Assembly: GCF_000153465.1 (NCBI RefSeq)
Contig: NZ_CH672387.1
Span: 2,457,903 to 2,521,902, forward strand
Origin: Aurantimonas manganoxydans SI85-9A1
GTDB taxonomy: Bacteria > Pseudomonadota > Alphaproteobacteria > Rhizobiales > Rhizobiaceae
Direction of reading: 5' to 3'
DNA: 64,000 nucleotides
The position numbers and the translations under genes are program-made. The notes under the pieces are model-generated. The model was not told the DNA's origin. It saw nothing but the letters and a program-made list of their open reading frames with translations, and did not search any database. Below, in pieces: positions 1 through 14,380 of the stretch. Every line of letters begins with the position of its first letter. Position 1 is the first letter of the stretch.

Positions 1-750
1 TTGGTCCTGCATCCAGTCGGTATCGAAGGACAGCGCCGTTCCCACGGCCGTTCGCCTCGCCTCGCCGCTTCCGGCAACGATCAGGAGGTTGCGGGTTTTC
101 TCGACCCTTACAGATCCCGGCCTGATGGCAAAGCCGTCGATCAACCGCGTAAGGGTTTGCGCCGAGACATATTTCAGCGGAATAACGGAAAGTCCGTGGC
201 CGGCAGTTGCCTGCCCCCTTTCAATGGGAGTGGCCGCGGTGGAAGCATCGGTCGTAATGCGGTAAAGCTCGCCTGCCTTGACAAGCGCAAGGCCATTGCC
301 AGAAAGAACGCTTTCCAGGATCGCTAAAAGATCATCACGCGCCACTGGCCTTGCCGTCGACAGCGTCACCTCTCCCGTCACGTCCGGATCGAGGGTATAG
401 CCAATCCCAAGGGCCTCTCCTAGAATGGCCTCAACTACCTCGGGGATTGCGGCGCCTTGGAAGTTCAAGTTTACTTCCCCTACGGAACTGGCAGAAACAC
501 CAGGAGGAAGTGGCGGCGCGTTCCTCGCTTCGGGCCCAAAAAAGGCTCCCGCAGCATCCTGCGAGGTAGCTTGTCCTGGAAATCCGCTCGGATCTGCACG
601 AGGTTGCCTGGCGGAGAAATCCGGCCCGAATGCAGCCCCGTAAATCCCGGAACGATCCGTCGTCTCCATGATCCCGTCGAGGCCAGCGCAGCCGCCGGCA
701 AAAAGCAGAACGCTGATGACGGGAATTGACGGAAGCATCTCAGAGCGCAT
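1..750 (-). CDS. gspD: Type II secretion secretin GspD, N-terminal part (cut by window edge)
   Basis: The reverse frame stays open for 250 codons from an ATG at 750 to base 1, so the gene is truncated by the window. The N-terminus has a hydrophobic stretch and a lipobox-like LFAGGC (Cys about residue 21), suggesting an outer-membrane lipoprotein. It is followed by a secretin N0-like domain (residues about 75-150: VNLNFQGAAIPEVVEAILGE, then YTLDPDVTGEVTL) and the start of an N1-like domain (GLSVIPLKYVSAQTLTRLI). Secretins form the outer-membrane gate of the T2SS. GGGAG sits 6 bases before the ATG. It diverges from gspE, and the other gsp genes lie at 2.6-8.7 kb. The membrane-embedded secretin domain is outside the window, so the identification rests on the N domains and context. 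Confidence 0.85.
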   Translation of the reverse strand, partial: MRSEMLPSIPVISVLLFAGGCAGLDGIMETTDRSGIYGAAFGPDFSARQPRADPSGFPGQATSQDAAGAFFGPEARNAPPLPPGVSASSVGEVNLNFQGAAIPEVVEAILGEALGIGYTLDPDVTGEVTLSTARPVARDDLLAILESVLSGNGLALVKAGELYRITTDASTAATPIERGQATAGHGLSVIPLKYVSAQTLTRLIDGFAIRPGSVRVEKTRNLLIVAGSGEARRTAVGTALSFDTDWMQDQ

Positions 751-933
751 GATCTCCCTCTCCAGCAGGCGGCTCGAAACCCGTCGTAGCTGTTTGCCCA
801 ACGCTTCCGTGAAGCGGCGCATTCAGTAATCCGTTTTGGGGATGCCCCCAAAGGTCCAAGCTCACTTTAATCGCAGAGTTCTATCACGTAACTATCGAAC
901 TTGGCCGTCGAAATCTTCGAATGGATTTGAATC
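751..933. promoter_or_regulatory. Divergent intergenic region between gspD and gspE
   Basis: This 183-bp gap separates the divergent starts of gspD (reverse) and gspE (forward) and must hold the upstream signals of both. I see no confident -35/-10 pair and no clear operator palindrome. Confidence 0.35.
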
Positions 934-2601
934 ATGGCTTCCAATCAGACGGTTGATGATAAATTTGTCACAGAGATTCGTAAGCGTACCGGAATTCCGT
1001 GCGCGTTTGATGCCGGAGAAAGGCTGACCTATCGCGACTATTGGGAGCAGCGGATACTTGCAGCGGACGCGCTGGCAGACGCAATAGCCGCATTTCATAA
1101 TTTGCCTCGAGCGCAGCCCGCCTCGATCAAATATCGAGCGGAACTTTTTGAAGACCTATCTCTGCAATTCCTAAGGGAAGCATGGATTTTCCCATACGAA
1201 TTCGGAGAAGAGACGGTGCTCGCCGTAGCAGACCCGACCAGGTTCGAAGCCATCCGATCCGCGAGGCTGGCAACAGGCGCCGTGTCGGAACTTCGCATCG
1301 CCGCGTTCGACGAGCTGGAGGTTCTTTTCGAGCAAGCCTTTGCGTCGGGACGCGCAGCGGCTTCATTGCCAGCGAGCACACTAATGCAGGACGCCAGATC
1401 CGAAGATGATCTGCAGAGATTGCAGGACCTCGCCAGCGGCGCTCCGGTCGTTCGGGCCGTAGATGAGATTTTCGACGCAGCTGTGATGCTGTCGGCGACG
1501 GATATTCACATTGAGTCCCAGGAAGATGGGCTGGCTATCCGCCTGCGTGTCGACGGCCTACTCCGGCCTTACGGGTTTCTCCCCGCCGCGCAGTCCCGCC
1601 CAGTCATCTCGCGTGTGAAAATCCTAGCGGGCCTTGACATTGCGGAACGCCGGCTGCCGCAGGATGGTCGAACGCGTATTCGCGTCGGCGGCGCTGACGT
1701 CGATCTCCGGGTTGCCACGGTTGCCGGGCTCCATGGGGAAACGGCGGTCGTCCGCCTGCTGAGCAGAGATGCAAAATTCCTGGATCTTGCGGCGCTCGGC
1801 ATGGCCGAAGATGATCTCGCGGCGGTGAATGTGCAGATTCAGGAACCGCATGGCCTAGTCATTGTGGCGGGTCCGACCGGCAGCGGGAAGACCACGACGC
1901 TCGCCTCTATCCTGTCGGTCCTGAACACGCCCGACCGCAAGATCATCACAGTTGAGGATCCGGTCGAATATCAGATTCCCGGTCTCGTCCAGACCCAAGT
2001 CAAGCCCGCGATCGGCTACACGTTCGCCACAGCGATCCGTTCATTTCTGCGACACGATCCGAACGTGCTCATGGTCGGCGAGATGCGGGACCGCGAGACC
2101 GCAGACATCGCCATCCAAGCAGCATTGACGGGGCATCTGCTTCTGACGACGCTCCACACCAACAGTGCGGCGGAAGCGGTGGTCCGCCTCGCGGACCTGG
2201 GCATAGACTCGTTCCTGCTACGGTCAACTTTACGCTGCGTCGTCGGCCAACGTCTGGTACGCCAGCTCTGTGCCCGCTGCCGCAGACCCACCGAGGAATG
2301 CTCTGCGTCAGCTTCGGCGTTGGCAGATGCAGGTCGATTCCAACCGCGACCGGAAGACTCCTATTTCGTCGCGGTCGGATGTAGCTGGTGCGGCGGTACC
2401 GGATACCGGGGTCGTATCGGGCTCTTCGAGGTGATCCGACTGGATGAGGGTCTGCGTACTCTTATCCGCAGCGACGTCGACGCGAGTAAGCTGGCACAGG
2501 AAGCCAGTACTCGAGGCATGCGAACCATGCTCCAGGACGGGATGGAGAAATATCGGTGCGGCATCACCACAGTCGAGGAAGTGCTGCGCGCGACGATCTG
2601 A
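934..2601 (+). CDS. gspE: Type II secretion ATPase GspE
   Basis: 555 aa. This is the cytoplasmic hexameric ATPase that powers pseudopilus assembly. An N-terminal GspE/MshE-like domain (about 1-150) precedes the motor domain. The motor has Walker A GPTGSGKTT (about 313-321), an Asp box (ITVEDPVEYQIPG), Walker B (VLMVGEMRD), and a His box (TGHLLLTTLHTNS). A zinc-binding tetracysteine region follows, with CARC at about 447 and CSWC at about 482. All catalytic motifs look intact and the length is normal for the family. It is the only gsp gene on the forward strand. Its stop lies 15 bp from the convergent end of the gspC/N-like gene. The ribosome-binding site before the ATG is weak. Confidence 0.95.
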   Translation: MASNQTVDDKFVTEIRKRTGIPCAFDAGERLTYRDYWEQRILAADALADAIAAFHNLPRAQPASIKYRAELFEDLSLQFLREAWIFPYEFGEETVLAVADPTRFEAIRSARLATGAVSELRIAAFDELEVLFEQAFASGRAAASLPASTLMQDARSEDDLQRLQDLASGAPVVRAVDEIFDAAVMLSATDIHIESQEDGLAIRLRVDGLLRPYGFLPAAQSRPVISRVKILAGLDIAERRLPQDGRTRIRVGGADVDLRVATVAGLHGETAVVRLLSRDAKFLDLAALGMAEDDLAAVNVQIQEPHGLVIVAGPTGSGKTTTLASILSVLNTPDRKIITVEDPVEYQIPGLVQTQVKPAIGYTFATAIRSFLRHDPNVLMVGEMRDRETADIAIQAALTGHLLLTTLHTNSAAEAVVRLADLGIDSFLLRSTLRCVVGQRLVRQLCARCRRPTEECSASASALADAGRFQPRPEDSYFVAVGCSWCGGTGYRGRIGLFEVIRLDEGLRTLIRSDVDASKLAQEASTRGMRTMLQDGMEKYRCGITTVEEVLRATI

Positions 2602-2616
2602 ACGGGCCGAGACCGG

Positions 2617-3072
2617 CTATTTTGGCTCGAAAAGCCGAAAGGTCTGGCTTCGACCTGCCATCTGAAATTCGAGCGTCTTCAGGTTTGGTATGGTGGCCGT
2701 CCAGCCTTCGTATTGCTCACCGGTCTTCAAGCGCACGGTTCCTGTCCCGGGAATGGCAACCAAGGCCGTTCTTTTGCCACCGATGGCGATCACGCCGAGC
2801 AGATGGATATCAGGCGGCGGTGGCGGGACCGGCGGAGCGGGCAGGCGAATGGCGACGGGACGGGGGATAGGCGCCGGCGGGGGAAGAGGCTGGCGCCGCG
2901 AGGGGGCAAACAGGGGACGGGCGCGGGTTTGCGTCAAATTGGTCAAGTCCGCGTCATCCAGCGGGAGCCCCAGTTCAAGATCGCCGTCTTCGCTCGCGGC
3001 ATACTCGGCCAAGGTCCTAATCGGCCCGGTAACGCAAAGCAGGAGTGCCAGCAGGTAGGCGAGAGAGCGCAT
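2617..3072 (-). CDS. GspC/GspN-like inner-membrane T2SS component with HR domain
   Basis: 151 aa, the last gene of the reverse-strand gsp run, starting one base after the gspM stop. It has an N-terminal signal/anchor (SLAYLLALLLCVTGPIRTLA). A Pro-rich linker (about 58-88) leads to a C-terminal homology-region (HR)-like fold (LLGVIAIGGKRTALVAI, then VRLKTGEQYEGWTATIPNLK). HR domains of GspC link the inner-membrane platform to the secretin GspD. It is shorter than classical GspC and has no PDZ domain. Rhizobial T2SS loci often carry such a short protein annotated GspN, so C-type versus N-type naming is uncertain; membership in the T2SS is well supported by position. Confidence 0.7.
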   Translation of the reverse strand: MRSLAYLLALLLCVTGPIRTLAEYAASEDGDLELGLPLDDADLTNLTQTRARPLFAPSRRQPLPPPAPIPRPVAIRLPAPPVPPPPPDIHLLGVIAIGGKRTALVAIPGTGTVRLKTGEQYEGWTATIPNLKTLEFQMAGRSQTFRLFEPK

Positions 3073-3630
3073 TCAGTTGCCCTCGGGACTCAGGTAGCCT
3101 TCGACCGCCACCACAGTTCGAAGCATGTCCTCGCCATCCGGGACGTCCCCATCCGTCGACGATCCCCGCAGCGACAGGGAGGAAATGAGCATCAGCGGCT
3201 GCCGGCTTTCGATGTCGTAGAGAATGTCCTGCACATTCTCCAGTTTGGCGAGGAACGAGAGCCTGAGCGTCGCACGACGATCCGTGTCCTCTTGCTGGGT
3301 AAGGAATTCGACCTGCGACACCGCTCCTCCATGATCCTCGACGATCCGGGTCAAGATATTCTGCAGGGTGGCCTCCGCGATAGGAACGGTGTCGCCGGCA
3401 ATGTAGAAACCGGGCCGATCCTCGGATGCTCCGGCTGGGGCGGACATGGGCGCAGAGGCAACTCGGTGACGCAGATCCGCAAGGATGTTCGACTTGTCCG
3501 CGGTTTCCGTTGCAATATCCTGGGACAATCGGTACTCGTTCAGAGCTAGAATGAGCATGCCCGGGGCGAGACAACCAACCGCCGCCCTCGCCCACCAGCG
3601 CATCTTCGATGGAGCTACATGGGAAGCCAT
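3073..3630 (-). CDS. gspM: Type II secretion protein GspM-like
   Basis: 185 aa. A short cytoplasmic N-terminus and one membrane segment (about 13-33, AAVGCLAPGMLILALN) are followed by a coiled-coil-prone periplasmic stretch (YRLSQDIATETADKSNILADL) and a ferredoxin-like C-terminal region (RATLRLSFLAKLENVQDILYDIE). This is the layout of GspM/PilO proteins that pair with GspL. The ATG at 3630 overlaps the gspL stop as TGATG; GTG codons at 3633 and 3636 are possible alternative starts. It is followed immediately by the HR-domain gene. The sequence is divergent, so the call depends partly on gene order. Confidence 0.75.
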   Translation of the reverse strand: MASHVAPSKMRWWARAAVGCLAPGMLILALNEYRLSQDIATETADKSNILADLRHRVASAPMSAPAGASEDRPGFYIAGDTVPIAEATLQNILTRIVEDHGGAVSQVEFLTQQEDTDRRATLRLSFLAKLENVQDILYDIESRQPLMLISSLSLRGSSTDGDVPDGEDMLRTVVAVEGYLSPEGN

Positions 3631-4691
3631 CACCACGCCGACCTTTCGACGATCACGGCTTCGATCTCGAAGCTGTCCCTGTCCCCGTTTCGATCCCGCG
3701 TCACGGGAGCAGTGAAGCGCACGTGTGCCAGCAGCGCAGAGCCGTCCAGTATGGCGATCAGATCGGATGGCGCACTCGACAGACCGGATATTCGGAGCGT
3801 CCGGCCGTCCACCGACAGGTCGGTCAGGTATGTGCCATCCGGCAGTACGGCGGATAGGTCTTCCAAGACCAAGACCATCGGCCAGCTCCGCCGTTTGCGA
3901 TCGAGCACCACGACGGTTCCCCCTGTCTTCGATGCCGCTCCGGTTCCGGCGAGAGCTCCACGAAGATGTTCGATCTCCTGCGTCATGATCGAGGACTGCA
4001 CCTGACGCTGGTGGTTAGCCCAAGCCTGAAAAGCAAACGCCGCGGTCGCCGCGCCCGCGATAGCGGCCGCGATAAAGATGCCATACCCGCGGTGCGTCCT
4101 ATGCAAAGGATCAACGTTGGGTTTCAGGTTGAGGATACTCGGACGATCGAGAGGATCATCGCTTACCCCGACCAACGCCGGTCGCAGACCAGCTTCGATC
4201 AGGGGAGCAGTTCGCGCCGAGAAGATGGCGCGGGACATCACGGTCAGACGCACCGTCAACTCACCCGGAGCGGCGGACGGGCTCTTCTCCAGGATCACGT
4301 GCCCATAGACAGCCTTCTCCGACGACCACGGTGTCAGTCGGTCGACCTGATGCTGAACGATCGAAGCGATGTGGTTCCGACCGGCCGCCGGAAGGCAGAT
4401 CACGGTGGTGACCGTGTTCGCAGCGTCGAGCCTCAAGTCGAACGACTGACGCCGAAGGATGCGAGCCGTTCGTCCCGTCGGAACATCCTCGAAGGCCCCG
4501 CTGTCAATCAACGCCAGTTGACCGTTGCGCCGTCTACGGAAGCATTCGAACCGCCCGTCACGTTCCACAAGAAGAAGCGACGGTTGCCCGGCCTTGGAGA
4601 CGACAAGCTGTGATAGCCATCTGGCCCAGCCCCGCCATGACACTGCAGGGGCAATTCTCGCCTCACTATTGACGGGGGAAACGAGGCTCAT
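3630..4691 (-). CDS. gspL: Type II secretion protein GspL-like (PilM/PilN-type platform protein)
   Basis: 353 aa from the ATG at 4691, which overlaps the gspK stop as ATGA. The N-terminal half is cytoplasmic and actin-like (LLLVERDGRFECFRRR; ICLPAAGRNHIASIVQHQVD). A membrane helix at about 225-245 (IFIAAAIAGAATAAFAFQA) leads to a periplasmic PilN-like part (LEDLSAVLPDGTYLTDLSVD, then LRISGLSSAPSDLIAILDGS). GspL anchors the ATPase GspE to the inner-membrane platform and pairs with GspM, the next gene. An upstream in-frame GTG at 4736 would lie inside gspK and looks unlikely. Confidence 0.85.
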   Translation of the reverse strand: MSLVSPVNSEARIAPAVSWRGWARWLSQLVVSKAGQPSLLLVERDGRFECFRRRRNGQLALIDSGAFEDVPTGRTARILRRQSFDLRLDAANTVTTVICLPAAGRNHIASIVQHQVDRLTPWSSEKAVYGHVILEKSPSAAPGELTVRLTVMSRAIFSARTAPLIEAGLRPALVGVSDDPLDRPSILNLKPNVDPLHRTHRGYGIFIAAAIAGAATAAFAFQAWANHQRQVQSSIMTQEIEHLRGALAGTGAASKTGGTVVVLDRKRRSWPMVLVLEDLSAVLPDGTYLTDLSVDGRTLRISGLSSAPSDLIAILDGSALLAHVRFTAPVTRDRNGDRDSFEIEAVIVERSAW

Positions 4692-5548
4692 GTTTGGCCA
4701 TCCCCACTTCCGACACCGTCTTGCAGCCGTGACCACATCAAAACCGCAAACGGCTTAGGAGCCTTATTCCTTTTTGCGATCACGGCCTCAGAGATTCCCA
4801 CAGCGCCCATTATGGTCCGCGCGGTCAGGCGAACCCGGAACACGCCAGACCGCGCGTCCGTCTGTTCGTTATCCGCCGTAAGGTCATCGGCGCTTACATC
4901 CTTGTCGGCAATTCTCGCGGCTGATTTTTCGACTGCGGCCCTGACGGTGGCCGACGCGCCCTTCTCGAGGACGTGCGAACTCGGGCTAAAGACGGTTAGG
5001 AAGGGGCGCAGCCTCTGAAAATCCGTCGCGTCCAGCCCGTGCAGAAAGCGAAGCTCGTCGACCGAGCGGAAGAGCCGATTGGGGGGCATTCCGACCCTAC
5101 CCGCGGCTGCATAGTCGAACCCCTCTGCTCCGTAGATCGAACTGAGACTATCCTCGTCGCGCCAATCCATCACCCTATCAGCAAAGGCTTTTGGGTCCAG
5201 CGAGGTGCCGCCCGCAGCATCGAAGAGGCTGGCGAGCAACGTGGGAGTGGCCTTGTTGAGATCGACCCGGATCGCTTCATCGACGACCTCCATTTCAACC
5301 GATCCCCCGCCCAGAGACAGGACCGTGGCATTCACGTCGTCGGGCTCCTGATTTTCAACGAACAGAAAATATCCGGCGCCCGTCAGACCGCTATCCAGCA
5401 GGGATTCGACCTGCAGCGCCTGACTACCTATCGACATCCTCTGGATGCCTTGCCCAGTCAAATGGACGAGGCCGACGGCGACCACCGACATGAGCCCGGC
5501 AAATCCCAGCACCGCGAGAGTGATGTAGCCGTCATCTTCACCGCGCAT
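4688..5548 (-). CDS. gspK: Type II secretion minor pseudopilin GspK
   Basis: 286 aa. A short leader ends in a G|YITLA cleavage context (Gly7) followed by a hydrophobic helix (LAVLGFAGLMSVVAVGLV). GspK lacks the Glu5 of other pseudopilins, as here. The long soluble domain has GspK hallmarks: VDLNKATPTLLASLFDAAGG, then DRVMDWRDEDS, and VDELRFLHGLD, consistent with helix-hairpin-helix (SAM-like) modules. GspK caps the GspI-J-K tip complex. I chose the ATG at 5548 because GGAG lies 8-9 bases upstream; an ATG at 5560 is an alternative. It overlaps gspJ by 11 bases and gspL by 4. Confidence 0.9.
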   Translation of the reverse strand: MRGEDDGYITLAVLGFAGLMSVVAVGLVHLTGQGIQRMSIGSQALQVESLLDSGLTGAGYFLFVENQEPDDVNATVLSLGGGSVEMEVVDEAIRVDLNKATPTLLASLFDAAGGTSLDPKAFADRVMDWRDEDSLSSIYGAEGFDYAAAGRVGMPPNRLFRSVDELRFLHGLDATDFQRLRPFLTVFSPSSHVLEKGASATVRAAVEKSAARIADKDVSADDLTADNEQTDARSGVFRVRLTARTIMGAVGISEAVIAKRNKAPKPFAVLMWSRLQDGVGSGDGQT

Positions 5549-6230
5549 CTTCGGCTCCATTCGGGGGCGAATTTTCCTCCCCCCGACAGATCCCTTCGAG
5601 AGTAACGCAGTCGAAAACTGCGTCGACATGCGTGGCGGCGATCATGCTGGTCGCCAGTCCACGTGTTTTCGCGTCAGTGATATCCAGTCGAAGCAATGCC
5701 GGCAACGCGCTCCGCCCGTTCCATCCGGCGTTCCACAGCGACGCTTTGCCAGTACCGTCATGGGCATATGCAAACCGGAAGATCCAAGGGCCGGACATCA
5801 GGATCGCGGGGTTTCGCCGATGCAGGCGCGCCCGCGTCGGATCACCCGGGATGAGCGGGGTCTCCCAACGTAGCAACGTGCCGATACCAGACTCATAGTG
5901 ACTCTCGATCCAGACCATCGTCTCCGGCACTTGGCCGTCGGCGGCGACCGCGTAGACGATGGACGTCTGAGATCCGCTGAAGAGCAGCGGACTGTCTTTC
6001 GTCGGACCAGTGCGGACGGCGATCATGCCTGAGACATCCCGCTTCAGCCGTGCAACGCCTGCGGCAAGCACCTCCATCTGGTTGTTCTTTGCGTTGGCAG
6101 CCTCGGAATGGCGGACTACCACGCCTGTCGCCAACGACAGCGTCGCAATCACCAGGGCGGACAGGGACAGAACACAGACCGCTTCGATCAGCGCGAAGCC
6201 GCCATTGTGCGGAGAGCGTTGACGGCTCAC
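5538..6230 (-). CDS. gspJ: Type II secretion minor pseudopilin GspJ
   Basis: 230 aa, GTG start overlapping the gspI stop (GTGA). The prepilin signal is clear: an 11-residue leader ending in Gly, then FALIE with Glu at +5, followed by a hydrophobic helix (AVCVLSLSALVIATLSLATG). The C-terminal region, with paired strands such as SGPWIFRFAYAHDGTGK and LPALLRLDI, fits GspJ. It is a part of the pseudopilus tip complex. Confidence 0.88.
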   Translation of the reverse strand: MSRQRSPHNGGFALIEAVCVLSLSALVIATLSLATGVVVRHSEAANAKNNQMEVLAAGVARLKRDVSGMIAVRTGPTKDSPLLFSGSQTSIVYAVAADGQVPETMVWIESHYESGIGTLLRWETPLIPGDPTRARLHRRNPAILMSGPWIFRFAYAHDGTGKASLWNAGWNGRSALPALLRLDITDAKTRGLATSMIAATHVDAVFDCVTLEGICRGEENSPPNGAEDAR

Positions 6231-6598
6231 TGCGATACTCCCAGGGTGAGCGCCTCGAGCGTGATGACATGCCCGGACCTTGCCTCGACCGATACCCGGA
6301 TAGCGAGCAGATCTGAGAATGCAAAATCCCCGTCATCCGCATCGGGTTCAGGCCCATCCCGGTAAAAGCGGGTTTCGGCCACCCATCTCAAGCCATTCTT
6401 TGTCCCGCTGCGGACACCAGCGCTTAGGGAGGTATCGCGTTGCTCCGCGGACAGCACTGCCTCCGCGACGATCTGCGCTTGGACCGTTTCTTCGATCCGT
6501 TCGATTCCGGCGCGGGACGATGCGACCGCCCGCGGCGCCAGCGAAACAAGACCGGTGAGAATGGCGGCCGCGACGATCATCTCAAGGAGGGTGGTCAT
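6227..6598 (-). CDS. gspI: Type II secretion minor pseudopilin GspI (unusual leader)
   Basis: 123 aa. The N-terminal helix MTTLLEMIVAAAILTGLVSL has the pseudopilin core with Glu in the right register. No Gly precedes the helix: the residue at -1 is the initiator Met itself, so the usual prepilin-peptidase leader is missing. The ATG at 6598 overlaps the gspH stop as ATGA, the same coupling seen at neighbouring junctions, which supports this start. A longer upstream reading would overlap gspH and give EEGPM before the helix, which still lacks Gly at -1. GspI nucleates the pseudopilus tip with J and K. Confidence 0.8.
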   Translation of the reverse strand: MTTLLEMIVAAAILTGLVSLAPRAVASSRAGIERIEETVQAQIVAEAVLSAEQRDTSLSAGVRSGTKNGLRWVAETRFYRDGPEPDADDGDFAFSDLLAIRVSVEARSGHVITLEALTLGVSQ

Positions 6599-7077
6599 AG
6601 GCCCCTCCTCGTTCGGTCCGTGTCGATGATGACGCTCGATGTCAGTGGGTTGATGGACACCTGCGCTGCAGCCTGTTGCCACCGGAGCGTCAAAACTCCT
6701 CCGGAGGATCGTCCGTCGGGCGAAAATCGAATGTGGGCATGTCCGTCCCGGATTATGCGGCCGCCCTGCCCAAGCTCCGTGGCGATGCCATCCGGGATTC
6801 TGAAGTGCGTGGATTGCAGGCCTGATGCGATGAGGCCCGTCTCTAGATCCAGCGTGGTGGCCACCTCGGCACCCGTTCGAGCCGCGCCATGCCGGTCGAT
6901 CATGAGGACGTTTGCGATCGCCGTCGCCGTTTCCCGCAGATCGGCAAGCCCTTTCATCGGCAGGGCACGCGGCAGGGCGATTACTGCGACCAGTGCGGCA
7001 ATCGCCAGCGCGACCACCACTTCCAGAAGGCTGAAGCCACCGCCGTGGTCAGCGGCTCGTGATGTCGATCGTTCCAC
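6595..7077 (-). CDS. gspH: Type II secretion minor pseudopilin GspH
   Basis: About 160 aa from a GTG at 7077 (another in-frame GTG is at 7089). Leader ending GGG|FSLLE with Glu at +5, then a hydrophobic helix (VVVALAIAALVAVIALP). A soluble GspH-type domain follows (THFRIPDGIATELGQGGRI, then IRFSPDGRSSGGVLTL). The start lies inside the last 29 bases of gspG and the end overlaps gspI by 4, so it is translationally embedded in the gsp operon. The start codon choice is an inference from leader length. Confidence 0.85.
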   Translation of the reverse strand: MERSTSRAADHGGGFSLLEVVVALAIAALVAVIALPRALPMKGLADLRETATAIANVLMIDRHGAARTGAEVATTLDLETGLIASGLQSTHFRIPDGIATELGQGGRIIRDGHAHIRFSPDGRSSGGVLTLRWQQAAAQVSINPLTSSVIIDTDRTRRGL

Positions 7078-7513
7078 TGCCGCCTCCACTGCCTTCAGGC
7101 CCCAGCGAGCGGATATCGAACTTGGTCCCGGTCGCCGTAGATCGGTACTGGTAGGGCTTCCCCCACGGGTCGACGGGGACTCTCCCCTGCTGCACGTAGG
7201 GTCCGTTCCAACCCGGAATACTGCTCGGCTCGACCAAGGCCGCCAGGCCCTCCCGTTCGGTCGGGTATCGGCCGATGTCCAGGAAGAAGAGATCGAGCGC
7301 CGATGACAAGGATTCGATCTGCATCTGTGCGGTCTTGGCGCGGGCATCGCCGAGATAGCTCAGGACCCGCGGTCCCACGAGCCCCATCACCAGACTCAGG
7401 ATCACGAGGACGACCAGCAGCTCGACCAGCGTGAATCCGCCGTCGCGATCGCGTGGATGCGAGTAATCCGCCTTAGGCCTTTGGCGATGCGAGGTTTCGT
7501 ATGGCTGGATCAT
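7049..7513 (-). CDS. gspG: Type II secretion major pseudopilin GspG
   Basis: 154 aa. The leader ends in GG|FTLVE (Gly26, Glu at +5) before the hydrophobic helix (LLVVLVILSLVMGLVGPRV). Family hallmarks follow: a helix with AQMQIESLSSALDLFFLDIG, RYPTEREGLAALV, then WNGPYV and VPVDPWGKPYQYR, the conserved segment that carries the calcium site in major pseudopilins. It forms the bulk of the pseudopilus. The ATG overlaps the gspF stop (ATGA). Confidence 0.95.
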   Translation of the reverse strand: MIQPYETSHRQRPKADYSHPRDRDGGFTLVELLVVLVILSLVMGLVGPRVLSYLGDARAKTAQMQIESLSSALDLFFLDIGRYPTEREGLAALVEPSSIPGWNGPYVQQGRVPVDPWGKPYQYRSTATGTKFDIRSLGPEGSGGGSGTIDITSR

Positions 7514-8724
7514 AGGATCATCTCATTCATCGAAAGCAGGGCGGTCATAACCGAGATGATGATCCACGCGATCAGGCCGCTGACGAGCAACAGGATGGTG
7601 GGACCGAGAATGGCGACGGCACGGGTCATGCCGCGATCCAGCCTGGCTTCGTAATACAGCGCCGTTCGTGTCGCCGCGGCGCCCAGCCCCGACTCTTCCC
7701 CGACGCGCAGCATATGGACGGCATAAGTTGGCAGCAGGGACCTGGACTCGAGTGAATCGCTCAACCTGCGGCCTTGGCGAACTTCCGCCAGTACGGCGTC
7801 GATCGATTGGCGGTCGCGGTCGAAGATCATCGTGTCGCGGATCAACCGGAGAGCGGAGGAAATGTCGACATCGCTGCGGATCAGCAGGCCGAGATTGGCG
7901 CAGAACGTGACCGTGCGCGCATCGGACGCCAGTCTTCTCAGTCCCGGCAGACGGCAGAACAGTTCATAGCTGCGCTCTCTGATCGCCCGGCTGCGAGCAC
8001 CCCACAGCCCGGCCAACAGTGCTACGATAGTCACGATCACGATCTCGGTGCCGTTGGTGCGGAATGTGCGAGACAGCCAGAATATCGTCTGGGCCGGGCC
8101 TTCCGGTGACCCGCTCCCCGAGAGGGCGCGATCGAACTCAGGGATGACCACTGCCAGCACGAACGCCAGTACGCCCACGGCTGCGGCGGCGAGGAAGCCG
8201 GGATAGGCGAGAGCCGAGGAGATGCGCCGTCGGAGTTCCTCGCTGCGCTGCCGCTCGCGAGCCAGGACGGCGAGTGTCTCCGGCAGGGTGCCTGCAGCCT
8301 CTGCGACCTGGACGATCTTGACGTAGTTCGCCGGGAAGGCGGTCGGGTGATTGCCAGTCGCCTCAGCGAGGCTCTGTCCCATCGAGATCGCTTGATGCAG
8401 GTCCCGAAGCAAAACGGCGATGACTGGCTTCGTGGCCGTCTGCGATATGATCAGAATAGCGCGATCCAGCGCCACGCCGGCCGTGAGGAGCGCCGACAGG
8501 TCTTCGGTGACGCGGGTGACGTCGCCGGCGCCAGGCCGCTGCGCGAAGAGTGCGGTGATCCCGGAGCTGAGGGATTGCCGGCGGGGCACGTCCTTGGCGA
8601 TCTCGATGGGCAGCAACGACTGGCGCTCCAGCTCGATGCTGATCGCGGCCCTGGTCGGACCTTCGAGAGTGCCGGCGACGATGTGGCCGGTAGGGGTCAG
8701 TGCCTGGTAGGCGAAACTCGTCAT
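7510..8724 (-). CDS. gspF: Type II secretion inner-membrane platform protein GspF
   Basis: 404 aa. It starts FAYQALTPTGHIVAGTLEG, the usual GspF N-terminus, and contains two homologous cytoplasmic GspF domains (about 65-190 and 270-390). These are separated by and followed by membrane segments (FLAAAAVGVLAFVLAVVIP, IVIVTIVALLAGLWG, ILGPTILLLVSGLIAWIIIS). The motifs MGQSLAEA, IVQVAEAAGTLPETL and MLRVGEESGLG are typical. It is the polytopic platform that couples GspE to the pseudopilus. It lies 51 bp after the SCO/cytochrome c gene and overlaps gspG, joining the copper genes and the gsp genes into one probable transcript. Confidence 0.95.
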   Translation of the reverse strand: MTSFAYQALTPTGHIVAGTLEGPTRAAISIELERQSLLPIEIAKDVPRRQSLSSGITALFAQRPGAGDVTRVTEDLSALLTAGVALDRAILIISQTATKPVIAVLLRDLHQAISMGQSLAEATGNHPTAFPANYVKIVQVAEAAGTLPETLAVLARERQRSEELRRRISSALAYPGFLAAAAVGVLAFVLAVVIPEFDRALSGSGSPEGPAQTIFWLSRTFRTNGTEIVIVTIVALLAGLWGARSRAIRERSYELFCRLPGLRRLASDARTVTFCANLGLLIRSDVDISSALRLIRDTMIFDRDRQSIDAVLAEVRQGRRLSDSLESRSLLPTYAVHMLRVGEESGLGAAATRTALYYEARLDRGMTRAVAILGPTILLLVSGLIAWIIISVMTALLSMNEMIL

Positions 8725-8775
8725 GTCACCCTACCCTCTTGTGAACGCGACTTACAGGTCTGCTGATCGGGGCGA

Positions 8776-9858
8776 TCAGTCGTGATGTGAACTCCGGGCA
8801 CGGCCGCGTCCGCGGTCACGATGGTCGTGGGCGGAGTTGGGGTCGGTTGCGCCGTCATGGTGGTCGTGATGTGCGGCTGGCTGCGCCATGCCATGGTCGT
8901 GGGAGGGATTGCGGAGCGCCTCCTGTTCTCGCTCCTTGAAAAGCGCGGAACCCACCGCATCGACATAGGCAACGAGATCGGTGGCATCGTTGTCCGACAG
9001 GCCCAGCGTCGGCATGCGCACTCCTGGAAAGCGGGCGACAAGGGCGGCCAATTCCGGATCGGCGGTGGCGCGCTGCCGGTCCGGGCTGCGGATGAACGAA
9101 ACCAGCCAGTCATGATCCCGCCGGTTCGTCGCCCCGAGAAGATCGGGACCCGCCCGATCGCCGGCCCCGATGGTGTGACAACCCGCACAGAGCTTCTTGT
9201 AGAGTGCCTGTCCAGGCTGTTCGCTAATCTGCCCGGCAACCGCTTCCCGAGACATGGATCTGTCCGAGAGTGCCCGGCCCGTCCGCCGCCATTCAGGATC
9301 CATAGCTAGGATGTCGACGACGAGGCGCTCGAGGTCGCCGAAGGTGCTGTTCCTGGCCCATTCTCCCGTCAGGTCGTTGCCGAGCACCACCTCGTTGCGA
9401 TGTTCCGACAGCGAACGGCTCCTGTCGCCGAGTGCATGATTGATGACCTTCATGTCCTCCGGCATGCCGGTCACGAAAGTCCATCCGGATCCGACGTCGA
9501 ACGCATCCGCAAAGGCATTGAGGCGTTCGGGCGTATCCCGCTCGGGATCGACGCTCAGGGAAACGAACGAGATGTTCGTGCCACCTCTTTCAGCTAGGCG
9601 GCGTTGCACTTCGACAAGACGGGCCGTCGTCAACGGACACAAATCAAGACAACTCGTGTAGATGAAACTGACGACGACGATGCGATCCTTGATGAGGTCG
9701 TCGTAGAAACGCAACTTTTCGCCGTTATGGGTCACGACCGGGCGGTTGGTGAAATAGTCGGCATTGTAGCGGGAGGATCCCGCCTCGGCATCGATCTCGC
9801 CCGTCATCGCAAGCAAGCCAAGCAGCAATGCGACCATTCTTTTGCGGAGGATACTCAT
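8776..9858 (-). CDS. SCO1/SenC-cytochrome c fusion with His-rich tail
   Basis: 360 aa. A signal peptide (about 1-26) precedes a thioredoxin-fold SCO1/SenC domain. Its copper-ligand motif is C70-x3-C74-P (SCLDLCP), and the likely third ligand is His153 (LSEHRNEVVLGND). SVDPERDTPERL is also a family motif. A class I cytochrome c domain follows with haem site C224-AGC-H228 and probable axial Met282. The last 41 residues contain about 10 His, suggesting a metal-binding tail. SCO proteins deliver copper to cuproenzymes, and the fused haem could carry electrons. It sits 48 bp after the multicopper oxidase and 51 bp before gspF on the same strand, so it probably serves that oxidase; this is inference from position. 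Confidence 0.88.
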   Translation of the reverse strand: MSILRKRMVALLLGLLAMTGEIDAEAGSSRYNADYFTNRPVVTHNGEKLRFYDDLIKDRIVVVSFIYTSCLDLCPLTTARLVEVQRRLAERGGTNISFVSLSVDPERDTPERLNAFADAFDVGSGWTFVTGMPEDMKVINHALGDRSRSLSEHRNEVVLGNDLTGEWARNSTFGDLERLVVDILAMDPEWRRTGRALSDRSMSREAVAGQISEQPGQALYKKLCAGCHTIGAGDRAGPDLLGATNRRDHDWLVSFIRSPDRQRATADPELAALVARFPGVRMPTLGLSDNDATDLVAYVDAVGSALFKEREQEALRNPSHDHGMAQPAAHHDHHDGATDPNSAHDHRDRGRGRARSSHHD

Positions 9859-9906
9859 CGAAATGACCTCATGCCGCTGAGATGCCGGTCAATCGTCGGA
9901 GGCGAC

Positions 9907-12264
9907 CTAGTCATCGTCGTCACCGCTGGCGATCGTTGTCTGGAGTTGTGCGGTGCGCACACCTTCGTCGCTCCAGCCGCGAGGCAGACCCTCAGGCAGA
10001 ATCTCGGGGTCGGTGAAAAATACGCCGTCCGGTGTCGGATTGGGCGTCGGCGTGATCGATGTCTGTGGTGACCCGGCAACGCCTGTCAGAAGCTGGATAC
10101 GGGCCAGCATGGCGAAGTCCTCGTGGACCGTGTTGTGACAGTGGTTCACATATGAGCCGCCAAATTCTCCGAACTGCACCTGAAAAGTAACACTGCCACC
10201 CTCACCAAGTCGCCAGACATCCTTGCGTGCCAAGCGTTCCGTATCCGGCAATTGCATGCCGTTGCGACCCATGGTGATGCCTTCTTCGAAATGCAGATGG
10301 ATCGGGTGGTCCCAGCCGCCTCCCCCGTTTTCATAGGTCCAATGCTCAACCTCACCGGGCGCCGGGATCAGCATCGAGATTCGGTTGGCGTTCATCGAAT
10401 GATGGTCTTCACCATTGATGCGAATGGTCCAGGGAAAGGTTGCGTATTCCGGGCAGTCGGGAATGCATTTGCCGTCCGCGCCGCGGGAATCGCCTCCCGA
10501 TTTCTTGAATTCCACATGACGCGTCCGAACAGGCGCAACGATCGGAATCTGCTCGGTCAGCAATGGGGGTATCTGGCTCTTGTCCGGATCGCTAGCCCTA
10601 TGGAACACACCCGGGACGTCGACGCTCTCCACTTTGTTGACAATTCGGAATTCCATAAAGGCGCCCACTACAGGATCCTTATCGTCTCCGCGAATTGCCT
10701 GCTTAAGCGACAGCTCTTCCTTCATCCGCCGGCCATCGCGGTGCAGCGCCTGATTGACTAGGTATATTCTGTCGCCCTTCCGGAACTGCGAGAAGTCGAC
10801 GATGATATCGAAGCGTTCCCCCATTCCCTGTGGTCCGAGGGTCGGGATTTGCAGGGGAGAAACGACAAGGTTTCCGTCGTTAGCTATGAAATGAACCGGC
10901 ACCGCCCGCCCTTGTTGGTCGGCGAGCCCGATCTTCCAAAAGCGCGACATGCTCGCGTTCAAGAGGCGGAAGCGATACTTTCTCGGTAGAACCTCGAAGA
11001 ATGGCGCATACGAACCATTGACTGCTGGAATATCGCCCAGCATTCCTTCCGTATCGAATATATCGAAGAACAATTGACCGCTGGCATCGTAGCAACAATC
11101 CCAGATCACCAAGTTGACGTCGAAATCCGTATTGCCCCAGTCAAGAAGCGTTCCGCTGGGTAGCCTCAGGTTGACGCCGTCGTCCATCTCCTCATTACCG
11201 CGATCGGGACCACTATAATAGTTGATGGCTCCGAAGTTTCCCTTGTAAACGTTCTCGGCTGTGAAGAAGAAACGATGGTCGTGCGCCCACATAGATCCCT
11301 GGATCTCTCGGAAGTCACCTGGCACGAGGTTAAGACCGCCATTGCCATCGGGGCCGGAAGCTCGCCTGTCCGACGCATCCGTGTTGATTTTGTCGGCACG
11401 GGCAAGTGTCGTGCTCCAGCGATAGTCATAGAAGGTACCTGGGAAATGATGGACGTTTGCGGCACCGTCGCTCTCGGCGCCGTTATGGGCGTTGTGGAAA
11501 TGAAGCTGTGTCTCATTGCGGCCGAAACCGGCATTCTGTGACCGGTCAACTGGCATGTTGTTGTAGACACGGGTCAGCATCGGCTCACTGTACCGTGCCT
11601 TGATCAAGAACGGTGGCATACTTCCGACCGCGCTTCGGCCTGAGCCATAGCACCAGAAGCTATCGGAGTTTTGATAAGGAAAACTCTCGTGCATGTAGGT
11701 GTCGCCTGCGCATTGGCCGATCGACAGAAGGTAGCCAACCTCGGGGAAGTATTCTTCCCAACGCTGATGCGCGAAAATCTCGCCCGGCGGGCGACCTTCG
11801 ATTGGTCCCCTTCCGGTCAGCGGATTGCGAAATTTGGCATTGTCCGGATTCTTCGAGAATTGCGTGTGATAGGATTTCCGCCGGCCTGGCAATTCGCCCA
11901 ACTCGTTGGGAAATTTGGCAATCGACTCACCGTTGTTTGCGACTTTTCGCCGGAGTGGGATCGGTGCCTGTAACTGGCAGCGATGCAATTCCGTCGTGAA
12001 TTTCTTCGCACCGAACAGCGGACTACGCGGAGCGCCGGTGGGAATGTCGGCAAAGGCGCTGCGGGCGAAGGGACTCAACCCATTGACCATTGCCAGCGTC
12101 CCGACCGTGGTAAACAAGCCCCATTTAAATAGTTCCCTGCGAGTGACCTGCTCCTGGTTGAGCGCCCGCACGATCTCGGCTCGGTTCTCTCGGGCTCTTT
12201 CCGCTTCGCGGTAGCGAATTCTCGATGCATTCTGCAGGATATACATGGGATCGCTCCGGTCCAT
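9907..12264 (-). CDS. Tat-exported multicopper oxidase
   Basis: 785 aa. A twin-arginine motif TRRELFK (residues 41-47) is followed by a hydrophobic stretch and an AFA site, so the folded enzyme should reach the periplasm by Tat. All four copper-ligand clusters are present: HFH (255-257), HDH (328-330), HPIHLH (653-658) and HCHNTVHEDFAM (708-719), the last with an axial Met for the type 1 copper. Substrates of such enzymes include Mn(II), Cu(I), Fe(II) and phenolics; the sequence does not decide between them. It is the first gene of a reverse-strand run continuing into SCO/cytochrome c and gspF-M. An ATG at 12246 with GGAG upstream is an alternative start. I infer that the T2SS exports it. Confidence 0.92.
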   Translation of the reverse strand: MDRSDPMYILQNASRIRYREAERARENRAEIVRALNQEQVTRRELFKWGLFTTVGTLAMVNGLSPFARSAFADIPTGAPRSPLFGAKKFTTELHRCQLQAPIPLRRKVANNGESIAKFPNELGELPGRRKSYHTQFSKNPDNAKFRNPLTGRGPIEGRPPGEIFAHQRWEEYFPEVGYLLSIGQCAGDTYMHESFPYQNSDSFWCYGSGRSAVGSMPPFLIKARYSEPMLTRVYNNMPVDRSQNAGFGRNETQLHFHNAHNGAESDGAANVHHFPGTFYDYRWSTTLARADKINTDASDRRASGPDGNGGLNLVPGDFREIQGSMWAHDHRFFFTAENVYKGNFGAINYYSGPDRGNEEMDDGVNLRLPSGTLLDWGNTDFDVNLVIWDCCYDASGQLFFDIFDTEGMLGDIPAVNGSYAPFFEVLPRKYRFRLLNASMSRFWKIGLADQQGRAVPVHFIANDGNLVVSPLQIPTLGPQGMGERFDIIVDFSQFRKGDRIYLVNQALHRDGRRMKEELSLKQAIRGDDKDPVVGAFMEFRIVNKVESVDVPGVFHRASDPDKSQIPPLLTEQIPIVAPVRTRHVEFKKSGGDSRGADGKCIPDCPEYATFPWTIRINGEDHHSMNANRISMLIPAPGEVEHWTYENGGGGWDHPIHLHFEEGITMGRNGMQLPDTERLARKDVWRLGEGGSVTFQVQFGEFGGSYVNHCHNTVHEDFAMLARIQLLTGVAGSPQTSITPTPNPTPDGVFFTDPEILPEGLPRGWSDEGVRTAQLQTTIASGDDDD

Positions 12265-12534
12265 TCGGGCCGGCCTGGCCCAAACCCAGACCTACTCGCC
12301 AGGCTCCATAACACCGTAGGCGTCATTTCGCCCTGTCCTTAGGGCACTTTGTCTTATCAAATATCAGACTTTATGCCGGTTCGTCGTAAGACCAAGGTCG
12401 TAATTGCCTACTGTCAATCGCCAGACGAGTGCGCCACCTCGGCTAGTTTGCTTGTTGGGTAGCCTTCAGCGCGTGCCTTTATTTGGTTTGCCCCCACTGA
12501 AGTGCGGCATTAGGTAGCAAAAGCCACAAGATCG

Positions 12535-13020
12535 ATGCGCCGTTTCCGGGTACAAATCCGCGAGTTTCGCGGGAGTTTGGGCAATGGGTTTCGAGGACGA
12601 TCTGAAGGCCCGAGGGCCAGTGTAGCGGCGGAGATTGCCAAGCTCAGTGCGAGGATTTCGGCGCTGGAGGAGGTTCTGTCATCCTTCGACGGCATTATCC
12701 GCTTCTACGACCCGTCGGCGGCCGTAGCGGTACCGTCACCGAAGGCTCAGGTCCAGCGGCAACCATTGCCGCTTCAGCTCCAGCAGATCAACAAAGCCGA
12801 GGCAGTGTTCCAGACGCTGCGCGAGGCCGGGCGGCCGATCTCGACGGGCGAGTGTGCGGAAACCATCGGCATGCGCCGCGGTGTTGATCCCGCAGATCCC
12901 GCACTGAAACGCTTCTCCAGTAACCTCTCCGCGACCCTCAGTAGCCTGAGGAAGCGCGAGCGTGTGCGTCAGGTGTCGTCCGCCGACGGTACCAAAAAAC
13001 TTTGGGAAATCGCCGCATAG
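12535..13020 (+). CDS. Uncharacterised protein with coiled-coil and winged-helix-like C-terminus, possibly 5'-frameshifted
   Basis: 161 aa as an open frame. The body begins ASVAAEIAKLSARISALEEV (coiled coil). A C-terminal half follows that looks like a small DNA-binding fold (KAEAVFQTLREAGRPISTGE, then SATLSSLRKRERVRQV). The first 28 residues of this frame look random. A better start is the ATG at 12584, with GGGAG upstream, which reads MGFEDDLKAR before meeting a stop after about 13 codons. Joining the two frames near 12613 gives a sensible N-terminus, so a one-base deletion there is likely. No function can be assigned. About 320 bases between the multicopper oxidase start and 12584 hold no other gene, only a 15-bp sequence shared with 37.9 kb. 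Confidence 0.45.
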   Translation: MRRFRVQIREFRGSLGNGFRGRSEGPRASVAAEIAKLSARISALEEVLSSFDGIIRFYDPSAAVAVPSPKAQVQRQPLPLQLQQINKAEAVFQTLREAGRPISTGECAETIGMRRGVDPADPALKRFSSNLSATLSSLRKRERVRQVSSADGTKKLWEIAA

Positions 13021-13095: not shown

Positions 13096-14380
13096 GCTGG
13101 ACACCCGCAAGAACCCTCCGCTTTGGCGGTTTCACCGCGGGATCATGCGGAGCGCGGGTCTGGCGCCGTCCTTGGAGCGATCCAAGGTGTTCGCATGACG
13201 TTTCTGCCCGTTTCTGAACGGACTCATGCCGTGGTCGCGCGACGTTCGTGGAAGATCAGGCGCTCCATGTTGTAGGCGATGTTGGCGAGCATCAGTTTTG
13301 CCTCGGCTCGGGCAAGGCCGATGGTGCGAATGAAGAGACCGAAGCGGATCTTCTGGTGCGCGAACACATGCTCGACGGCAGCCCGAATGGATGACTTTTT
13401 CGCATTCGCCTTTGCCATCGCTCTCGGCATCGATTTGCCCGCTGGCTTGCGTCGGTGGATGCGGCTGGTCAGCATCCGTTCCGCTAGCCACTTCTCGTTC
13501 TCCCCCGAACGATAGGCGCTGTCGGCCCAGACTTGCGAACCGGTGTTCTGTCGGCTCACGAGATGCCGAAGTTGCCGTCCGTCCGGGGCCGCCGCAGAGG
13601 TAACCGCGCTCTCGCGGATGAAGCCGAAGCGCTGGTCGATGCTGATGTGGGACTTGTAGCCAAAGACCGGCGTCGCGATCATCGGCAGCGGCGTACCGCC
13701 CGGGCGATACCGAACCTTGCCGCCGATCTTCAGTGTCCAGCGGGCGTCGACATCCTTCTGAGCCGCCTTGGCCGGCTCGTTGGGCCAGATTTCGCGGGCG
13801 GACTTTCCGGCCTTGATCGCCGCCTTCTCGCCCTCGGTGATGCGTTGCTTCGGCGCCGGAACCAGCGAGGCGTCTACGATCTGGCCAGCCATCGGGATGT
13901 AGCCCTTCTTCTGCAGTTGCCAGTCGAAGGCCTTCATCACCCGCTTCAAAGTTCCCGTCTCGGTCAGCCTGTTGCGAAAGTGCCGGATGGTGTTCTCGTC
14001 CGGTGTCGGAGCGCCTAGGTCGAACCCAAGGAACCGCGTCCAGGAAAGCCGCTCACGGATCATGAATTCCATGCGCGCGTCAGAGAGGTTGTGTTGCGCC
14101 TGCAGGATCAACGCCTTGAACATCGCTACGGGGTCGAACGGCGGCCGCCCGCCTTTGGAGCCGTCGCCGTAGCCTAGCCCCTCGACCAACCAGCCGCGGA
14201 AATGCTCGAAATCCACGGTCGTCTCGAGCGTCTCAAGCGGATCGCCGTTCTTGCTCAGGCGTTCCAGATGCTCCGAGAGCCCGAAAAACGACCGCTGATC
14301 CATCGACCTGCCTCCAAATCAAGACAGCCCGAGTGAATCACGAAATCCCCCGCCAAGCGAGGTTCTTGCGGGTGTCCAGC
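13096..14380 (-). mobile_element. IS5-family insertion sequence (1285 bp)
   Basis: The element is bounded by a 20-bp perfect terminal inverted repeat, GCTGGACACCCGCAAGAACC at 13096-13115, with its complement at 14361-14380. An imperfect extension with TGGCGG runs further inside. It encodes one full-length transposase on the reverse strand. I do not see a clear target duplication (GAA to the left, TAA to the right). It looks intact. Confidence 0.85.
13224..14303 (-). CDS. IS5-family transposase
   Basis: 359 aa, full length. The N-terminal domain (GGRPPFDPVAMFKALILQAQ, then RFLGFDLGAPTPDENTIRHF) and the DDE catalytic core (GQIVDASLVPAPKQ; VTSAAAPDGRQL; VWADSAYRSGENE) are typical of the IS5 family. 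The C-terminal region (RAAVEHVFAHQKIRFGLFIR) carries the conserved Glu. The start codon sits 77 bases inside the right inverted repeat and no frameshift is visible, so it may be active. Confidence 0.92.
   Translation of the reverse strand: MDQRSFFGLSEHLERLSKNGDPLETLETTVDFEHFRGWLVEGLGYGDGSKGGRPPFDPVAMFKALILQAQHNLSDARMEFMIRERLSWTRFLGFDLGAPTPDENTIRHFRNRLTETGTLKRVMKAFDWQLQKKGYIPMAGQIVDASLVPAPKQRITEGEKAAIKAGKSAREIWPNEPAKAAQKDVDARWTLKIGGKVRYRPGGTPLPMIATPVFGYKSHISIDQRFGFIRESAVTSAAAPDGRQLRHLVSRQNTGSQVWADSAYRSGENEKWLAERMLTSRIHRRKPAGKSMPRAMAKANAKKSSIRAAVEHVFAHQKIRFGLFIRTIGLARAEAKLMLANIAYNMERLIFHERRATTA

What the first reader, a model, noticed from the sequence alone, without database searches (positions are those of the whole stretch)
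2617..12264. Multicopper oxidase, SCO-cytochrome c and T2SS genes form one continuous operon
Eleven reverse-strand genes follow each other with gaps of 51 bp or less: multicopper oxidase, SCO1-cytochrome c fusion, gspF, G, H, I, J, K, L, M and the HR-domain gene. Most gsp junctions overlap. The oxidase leads the transcript and carries a Tat signal. Folded Tat substrates can be T2SS cargo, and T2SS-dependent export of Mn(II)-oxidising multicopper oxidases is reported in Pseudomonas. This suggests a dedicated secretion machine for one copper enzyme plus its copper/electron chaperone, a self-contained metal-oxidising system.
Basis: partly seen in the sequence, partly recalled or inferred. Interest (0 to 1): 0.8.

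Follow-up and report, generated by a model that had tools for sequence, protein, structure and literature searches.

The report
Export island for metal-oxidising copper enzyme
A copper enzyme that probably oxidises metals outside the cell sits beside its copper-delivery partner and a protein-export machine, and the same partnership turns up, in many different gene orders, in other groups of bacteria, often with a giant haem peroxidase of the kind known to oxidise manganese.

Summary
In detail: eleven reverse-strand genes at 2617-12264, gaps of at most 51 bp, no terminator-like site in the two open gaps, and intact copper motifs and a twin-arginine signal in the oxidase. The unit is larger: just left of the window lie the rest of gspD, a prepilin peptidase, a 3331-aa RTX haem peroxidase (MopA-like) and its type I exporter. 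The exact oxidase-SCO-gspF order recurs in one sister species; in Rhizobium and Ensifer the oxidase-SCO pair is divergent from gspF. Linkage itself is widespread: 43 of 65 genomes (best 80 of 299 loci) have T2SS core genes within 10 kb of this oxidase, in about 15 arrangements, in Alphaproteobacteria, Nitrospirota and Acidobacteriota. In 297 genomes of the order, 8 of 8 oxidase-bearers have a T2SS ATPase (39 of 289 others) and a giant peroxidase (9 of 289 others). At matched oxidase identity SCO identity changes little while GspF drops sharply, so the oxidase-SCO pair has probably joined different T2SSs more than once. Best reading: T2SS cargo in an extracellular metal-oxidation island, probably Mn(II). 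Secretion and substrate are unproven. New variant of a known kind (Pseudomonas and Geobacter precedents).

The parts
9907..12264 (-). Multicopper oxidase, 785 aa, twin-arginine signal (TRRELFK, residues 41-47), four copper motifs; proposed T2SS cargo
8776..9858 (-). SCO1/SenC-cytochrome c fusion, 360 aa, His-rich C-terminal tail; proposed copper loader and/or electron carrier for the oxidase
7510..8724 (-). gspF inner-membrane platform protein
7049..7513 (-). gspG major pseudopilin (over the TIGR01710 cut-off)
6595..7101 (-). gspH-like minor pseudopilin (XpsH-like, under cut-off; start uncertain)
6227..6682 (-). gspI-like minor pseudopilin (XpsI/GspI-like, under cut-off; start uncertain)
5538..6230 (-). 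gspJ-like minor pseudopilin (under cut-off)
4688..5629 (-). gspK minor pseudopilin (T2SSK_1st over cut-off; start uncertain)
3630..4736 (-). gspL-like (PilN domain over cut-off; start uncertain)
3073..3636 (-). gspM subtype b
2617..3072 (-). Small proline-rich protein in the place of GspC (by position and a conserved LGVI..GW pattern only; no family match)
934..2601 (+). gspE secretion ATPase, convergent with the operon
1..822 (-). gspD secretin, cut by the window edge; whole gene is L037:15648-17822 (window -1352..822), followed by a prepilin peptidase (L037:15028-15678)

Best explanation
The segment is part of an extracellular metal-oxidation island. The oxidase is exported folded to the periplasm through Tat (inferred from its signal); the SCO-cytochrome c protein loads copper and/or carries electrons for it (inferred from domains and constant neighbourhood); the neighbouring T2SS then moves the holo-enzyme across the outer membrane (inferred from repeated linkage). 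A giant RTX haem peroxidase of the MopA type with its own type I exporter lies beside it and probably acts on the same substrate outside the cell, most likely Mn(II). Shown here: gene content, linkage conserved in many gene orders, and genome-wide co-occurrence. Supported but not proved: separate histories of the oxidase-SCO pair and the T2SS. Not shown: transcription as one unit, secretion, substrate.
For: Linkage: T2SS core genes within the 10-kb flanks in 44 of 80 loci, 27 of 45 with at least 9 kb on both sides, 43 of 65 genomes; SCO within 2 kb downstream in 66 of 80. 26 order signatures, about 15 after my own merging: linkage is kept while order is scrambled. Sister species G303 has the same order. 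Order sample of 297: gspE in 8 of 8 MCO-bearers vs 39 of 289 (p 2e-7); An_peroxidase in open frames of 2000 aa or more in 8 of 8 vs 9 of 289 (p 2e-11; counts and the 2000-aa line are mine, set after seeing the table). At MCO identity 60-65%, SCO identity is 46% within and 43% between T2SS groups while GspF is 47% and 25%. Rhizobiaceae GspF forms one clade (100/100) with GspF of five T2SS clusters that have no MCO beside them (four of those genomes lack the MCO, G142 has it elsewhere). Peroxidase, type I ABC transporter and HlyD lie near the MCO here, in G303 and in Limimaricola; in Fuscovulum the first two. MopA-type peroxidases oxidise Mn(II) in Alphaproteobacteria (PMC6247904, passages).
Against: No experiment. 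18 of 45 fully flanked loci have no T2SS core gene nearby; several are copies without SCO, others (Methylopila, Bradyrhizobium, Microvirga, betaproteobacteria) have SCO. In the order sample only 4 of 8 MCO-bearing genomes show T2SS genes within about 20 kb of an MCO copy (one of the other four is on a 28.5-kb contig). 4 of 36 MCO-bearing genomes gave no GspG. Rank correlation of identities is modest for MCO-SCO (0.40) and not much lower for SCO-GspF (0.31), against 0.81 for GspE-GspF; at MCO identity 65-75% SCO too is lower between groups, 43 against 52%. AU test on GspE p 0.024, group chosen after the tree; one GspF constraint not rejected, p 0.27. The MCO reaches no curated NCBIfam cut-off. 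No promoter located.
Confidence: 0.6

Rival explanations
1. The unit is real and secreted, but the substrate is not manganese: the enzyme is a secreted laccase-like or ferroxidase MCO acting on phenols, humic matter, Fe(II) or Cu(I).
For: Best solved relatives are bilirubin oxidase, other MCOs, CotA and CueO. I could test no metal-substrate site in the sequence. The haem peroxidase could serve other purposes.
Against: Association with giant MopA-like peroxidases across genomes (8 of 8 vs 9 of 289); SCO and cytochrome c partners recur in OmpB/MofA metal-redox MCO clusters (PMC5566968 section 13).
Confidence: 0.28
2. The T2SS is a general exporter with many cargoes; the MCO sits in the same island and may or may not depend on it.
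For: 39 of 289 MCO-less genomes of the order have a gspE of this type, and T2SS clusters akin to the window's stand without an MCO beside them. In genus g38 the gspE is distant from the MCO.
Against: 13 of 18 genomes with a linked MCO copy have a single GspG, and linkage recurs with deeply different T2SSs.
Confidence: 0.2
3. Chance: a horizontally acquired, IS-rich block that holds unrelated genes together.
For: G+C of 0.55-0.66 over 1-12 kb against 0.63-0.71 over 25-64 kb apart from dips at 33-34 and 37-40 kb; 0.56-0.64 over the peroxidase side; transposase genes on both sides; only 2 of 8 genomes of the genus carry the MCO.
Against: The same genes stay together in many arrangements and in three phyla.
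Confidence: 0.05

Closest known systems
Gsp-related pathway needed for the Mn-oxidising factor of Pseudomonas putida GB-1 (de Vrind 2003; the name Xcm is recalled)
   Same: A general secretory pathway was found by mutagenesis to be needed for Mn oxidation (stated in PMC3056050, passages; original paper not read).
   Different: GB-1 uses MnxG and McoA (PMC11930936, passages), larger proteins as I recall; I had no sequences to compare and could not test linkage there.
Geobacter sulfurreducens OmpB multicopper protein and its atypical T2SS
   Same: Outer-membrane MCO; title of Mehta 2006 says it is secreted by an atypical T2SS (seen in reference lists); SCO1/SenC and cytochrome c genes in its cluster (PMC5566968 section 13).
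   Different: OmpB is a MofA homologue with a fibronectin domain, needed for Fe(III) oxide reduction; the section read describes no T2SS cluster beside it.
MofABC of Leptothrix discophora
   Same: MCO in an operon with a cytochrome c partner; homologous clusters sometimes add a SCO chaperone.
   Different: Different MCO; no T2SS in the description read; SCO and cytochrome c are separate there, fused here.
MopA-type long peroxidases of Aurantimonas, Erythrobacter, Roseobacter and P. putida GB-1
   Same: Animal-haem-peroxidase domains, often repeated, plus haemolysin-type calcium repeats.
   Different: Here it is the neighbour of the MCO-T2SS unit; its activity is untested.
SCO1/SenC-cytochrome c fusion with a solved cytochrome domain (PDB 2l4d)
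   Same: Molecule named as such a fusion; E 4e-14 over the cytochrome part.
   Different: Its partner enzyme is not known from a call.

Membership tests
Type II secretion system | Secretin GspD with N0 domain | tested here: met
   Secretin E 2e-42 and type_II_gspD_N0 E 6e-13
Type II secretion system | ATPase GspE and platform GspF | tested here: met
   T2SSE E 2e-122, T2SSF E 9e-40; NCBIfam GspF equivalog cut-off not reached, 224 of 424 bits
Type II secretion system | Major pseudopilin GspG and prepilin peptidase | tested here: met
   TIGR01710 135 bits, cut-off 88.85; Peptidase_A24 E 2e-9
Type II secretion system | Minor pseudopilins H, I, J, K | tested here: inconclusive
   K over the Pfam cut-off; H, I, J only weak family matches, in the usual order
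Type II secretion system | GspC linking protein | tested here: inconclusive
   Candidate 2617-3072 without family or structure match
Multicopper oxidase | Type 1 and trinuclear copper ligand motifs | tested here: met
   Four motifs present; H255, H257, H328, H330, H653, H656, H658, C709, H710, H714 invariant and H708, M719 nearly so in 25 sequences
Known Mn(II)-oxidising MCOs (MnxG, McoA, MofA, MoxA) | Sequence membership | not tested
   None of these sequences was in hand
Known Mn(II)-oxidising MCOs (MnxG, McoA, MofA, MoxA) | Mn(II) oxidation activity | not testable with these tools
   needs an assay
MopA-type long peroxidase (neighbour) | Animal haem peroxidase domains plus haemolysin-type calcium repeats in a very long protein | tested here: met
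   3331 aa, An_peroxidase E 3e-130 in 6 stretches, 14 HemolysinCabind stretches; the six An_peroxidase matches of the genome at E up to 0.001 all lie in this frame
MopA-type long peroxidase (neighbour) | Calcium- and haem-dependent Mn(II) oxidation | not testable with these tools
   needs an assay
Tat substrate | Twin-arginine motif before a hydrophobic stretch | tested here: met
   TRRELFKWG at residues 41-49 of the window protein; R43 is invariant, but the first arginine is lysine in 3 of 15 relatives (L004, L006, L011)

The most novel reading that the evidence does not exclude
A widespread two-enzyme, two-exporter system for extracellular manganese oxidation: the T1SS-exported giant peroxidase makes Mn(III), and a mobile MCO plus SCO-cytochrome c module, which has repeatedly attached itself to whatever T2SS its host owns, carries the oxidation on to Mn(IV) oxide, the cytochrome c possibly returning electrons to the cell.
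Probability: 0.2. Interest if true: 0.78.

Novelty: new variant of a known kind. Interest (0 to 1): 0.6.

Why it matters
As I understand the field, which enzyme oxidises manganese in Alphaproteobacteria, multicopper oxidase or haem peroxidase, and how it gets outside, is unsettled. An island that holds both, each beside an exporter, gives a defined set of genes to delete. It also offers a genomic marker (this MCO with SCO-cytochrome c and a T2SS) for candidate metal oxidisers, including Nitrospira metagenome genomes labelled RSF (which I take for rapid sand filter), and a likely example of cargo and secretion machine being brought together more than once.

Tried and rejected
Disfavoured: pure chance linkage. 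Left open: GspC assignment. A class-wide sample of 385 genomes found the MCO only in the window's genome and so gave no test of co-occurrence (GspG in 60 of 385). A conflict between MCO and GspF trees within Hyphomicrobiales was tried: the MCO side was not decisive without an outgroup (p 0.40 for the clade seen in the larger tree), so the strong GspF rejection of that clade (p 2e-6) is not used as proof. One GspF constraint (linked against unlinked rows) was not rejected, p 0.27; the GspE test gave p 0.024.

Dropped or not seen: 219 of 299 confirmed loci (one search keeps the best 80). L042 left out of alignment A2 (two in-frame stops) though its longest frame is in the MCO tree; L110 left out of that tree (short); L131 gave no GspE row; the GspE test used 43 of 70 rows; the identity comparison used 42 of 47 loci, those with MCO, SCO, GspE and GspF all found. 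Structure prediction never ran: the machine was busy at all 12 tries.

Literature searched in the open library. No passage that I read describes this MCO-SCO-T2SS-peroxidase linkage, but most papers on the lists were seen as titles and abstract starts only, and subscription papers are not held; Dick et al. 2008 on Aurantimonas was not available. Seen: whole text of PMC5122683; section 13 and passages of PMC5566968; passages of PMC11708043, PMC8218464, PMC9040806, PMC6247904, PMC3056050, PMC11930936, PMC9224936, PMC9476993, PMC10367259 and PMC3396595.
Full report
OBSERVATION. Junctions are 48 and 51 bp for MCO-SCO and SCO-gspF and overlaps or abutment elsewhere. No terminator-like site lies in the two gaps, and no sigma-70-type promoter was found in 2500-12700. 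The oxidase has four copper motifs and a twin-arginine signal, TRRELFKWG at residues 41-49; the first arginine is lysine in 3 of 15 relatives. SCO1-SenC and cytochrome c domains are fused; a protein named as the same fusion has a solved cytochrome domain, PDB 2l4d. The 'HR-domain gene' remains unassigned by family and structure.

THE UNIT IS LARGER THAN THE WINDOW. gspE lies on the other strand at 934-2601 and gspD is cut by the window edge. The genome to the left (L037; window coordinate = L037 coordinate minus 17000) holds the rest of gspD, a prepilin peptidase, an IS110-type transposase remnant, a 3331-aa RTX protein with repeated An_peroxidase stretches and a type I ABC transporter; further left are another RTX protein and an HlyD protein. 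All An_peroxidase matches of the genome lie in that one frame. One gspE (E at most 1e-70) and one GspG were found in the genome, and two secretins, one of them in the island. In sister species G303 (MCO 91% identical) gspO, gspD, gspE, the small gene, gspM to gspF, SCO and MCO have the same order and strands, with HlyD, RTX, ABC transporter and peroxidase genes on the other side of the MCO. Only 2 of 8 genomes of the genus have the MCO, and G+C is lower over the island than over most of 25-64 kb, so horizontal gain is likely.

CONSERVATION. A pattern scan of 84,980 species genomes confirmed 299 relatives; the best 80 loci were kept. With profile searches T2SS core genes (gspD, E or F) were found in the available flanks of 44 of 80 loci, and in 27 of the 45 with at least 9 kb on both sides; a SCO gene follows within 2 kb in 66 of 80; a peroxidase lies in the flanks of 15 of 80. 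By genome, 43 of 65 have a linked copy; of 39 genomes with a fully flanked locus 29 have a linked copy in some locus. Several unlinked loci are copies without SCO in genomes that also have a linked copy; others have SCO and are unlinked, for example Methylopila, Bradyrhizobium, Microvirga and the betaproteobacteria. The 26 order signatures, some of which differ only by contig ends, reduce by my own merging to about 15 arrangements. In Rhizobium and Ensifer the MCO-SCO pair is divergent from gspF; in Nitrospira it is co-directional with gspG, gspF and gspE. So the strict operon is so far a trait of this genus, the linkage a trait of the family. On plasmids, Fuscovulum and Limimaricola carry MCO-SCO with T2SS genes and a giant peroxidase, Paraburkholderia carries T2SS genes near the MCO, while Comamonadaceae OTU4NAUVB1 and Skermanella show MCO and SCO without T2SS genes in the stretch seen.

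CO-OCCURRENCE. Among 297 genomes of the order the MCO is in 8, from six genera. A gspE of this type is in these 8 and in 39 of the other 289. An_peroxidase in open frames of at least 2000 aa is in 8 of 8 and, by my count of the table, in 9 of 289; any An_peroxidase at E 1e-15 is in 8 of 8 and 40 of 289. Shared ancestry inflates such p-values; with the MCO-bearers collapsed to six genera they stay below 1e-5. Against: only 4 of these 8 genomes (G000, G187, G001, G167) show T2SS genes within about 20 kb of an MCO copy. In genus g38, G142, G170 and G252 have MCO, SCO, peroxidase and type I exporter together and the gspE far away or on another contig, while G034, G215 and G235 have the gspE without the MCO. 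GspG was found in 32 of 36 MCO-bearing genomes (misses are the genomes of L072, L081, L105 and L116). Of the 18 of these genomes with a linked copy, 13 have exactly one GspG; of the 18 others, 14 have at least one.

DIFFERENT HISTORIES. Over 42 linked loci, mean identities between Rhizobiaceae, Hyphomicrobium/Bosea, Rhodobacterales and Nitrospira are 54-61% for the MCO, 37-44% for SCO, 30-40% for GspE and 20-30% for GspF. At matched MCO identity (50-55, 55-60, 60-65, 65-75%) SCO identity within and between T2SS groups is 42/40, 43/40, 46/43 and 52/43, GspF 38/28, 40/25, 47/25 and 51/24. Rhizobiaceae GspF forms a 100/100 clade with five T2SS clusters that have no MCO beside them. This fits repeated joining of the MCO-SCO pair to local T2SSs. 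It is not proof: rank correlations are 0.40 for MCO-SCO, 0.11 for MCO-GspF, 0.31 for SCO-GspF and 0.81 for GspE-GspF; the AU test on GspE gave p 0.024 after the fact; a GspF constraint was not rejected; and an old linkage with fast T2SS divergence remains possible, since identity near its floor is a poor clock.

MECHANISM. Tat export of a folded oxidase, copper loading by SCO, possible electron traffic through the fused cytochrome c, then T2SS passage: each step is inferred from signals, domains and neighbourhood. The substrate is inferred from the peroxidase association. MopA-type enzymes of Aurantimonas, Erythrobacter and Roseobacter oxidise Mn(II) and give Mn(III) (PMC6247904, passages). 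Need of a general secretory pathway for Mn oxidation in P. putida GB-1 is stated in PMC3056050 (passages); SCO and cytochrome c beside metal-redox MCOs are described in PMC5566968 (section 13).

IDENTITY OF THE GENOME. It has RuBisCO_large matches (three, best E 5e-135), a duplicated second MCO (94% identical DNA over 2.8 kb; best tblastn E of the window's MCO against it 0.17), one giant peroxidase and 4.33 Mb. From memory of the abstract of Dick et al. 2008 (not held) this resembles Aurantimonas manganoxydans SI85-9A1, where duplicated MCO genes and a haemolysin-type peroxidase were reported in connection with Mn oxidation. I could not verify it. If true, the host is a proven Mn oxidiser, the neighbour is MopA itself, and the MCO of this island would be a further candidate that, as far as I recall, was not the one discussed.

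VERDICT. Real, widespread and functionally coherent; strict operon local; secretion and substrate open. The kind (T2SS-exported MCO with copper/electron partners) is known; this family's linkage in scrambled orders and its pairing with a type I-exported peroxidase were not found in what I could search and read.

Noticed in passing
window 12121-12264 (N-terminus of the MCO): The roughly 40 residues before the twin arginines are conserved (E20, A21, N27, R28, I31, L35 invariant in 25 sequences), an unusual conserved extension of a signal peptide.
   Followed up: no
window 13224-16196 and 22234-23475; L037:14079-14717: Transposase genes (DDE, IS110 and Mutator types) lie right of the MCO, and an IS110-type remnant separates the peroxidase from gspO; in sister species G303 the peroxidase block lies on the other side of the MCO, so a rearrangement has happened in one of the two.
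   Followed up: partly
G000:C1:1538929-1539273 and 2062070-2062414 (L168, L169): A duplicated second MCO, 94% identical in DNA between the copies and not akin to the window's MCO.
   Followed up: partly
L042:10001-12337: MCO translation in Ensifer sp. LC163 contig36 contains two in-frame stops; the same genome has another linked copy (L043).
   Followed up: no
L047, L050, L052, L070, L075, L080, L082, L083, L092: MCO copies without SCO or T2SS core genes in the flanks; L047, L075, L080 and L092 lie beside a peroxidase.
   Followed up: partly
window 8776-8900 and 9907-9930: The SCO-cytochrome c protein ends in a His-rich tail and the MCO in an acidic DDDD tail, longer in Limimaricola.
   Followed up: no
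G000:C1:227196-227786: A second secretin outside the island, in an 813-aa frame; which machine it belongs to was not examined.
   Followed up: no
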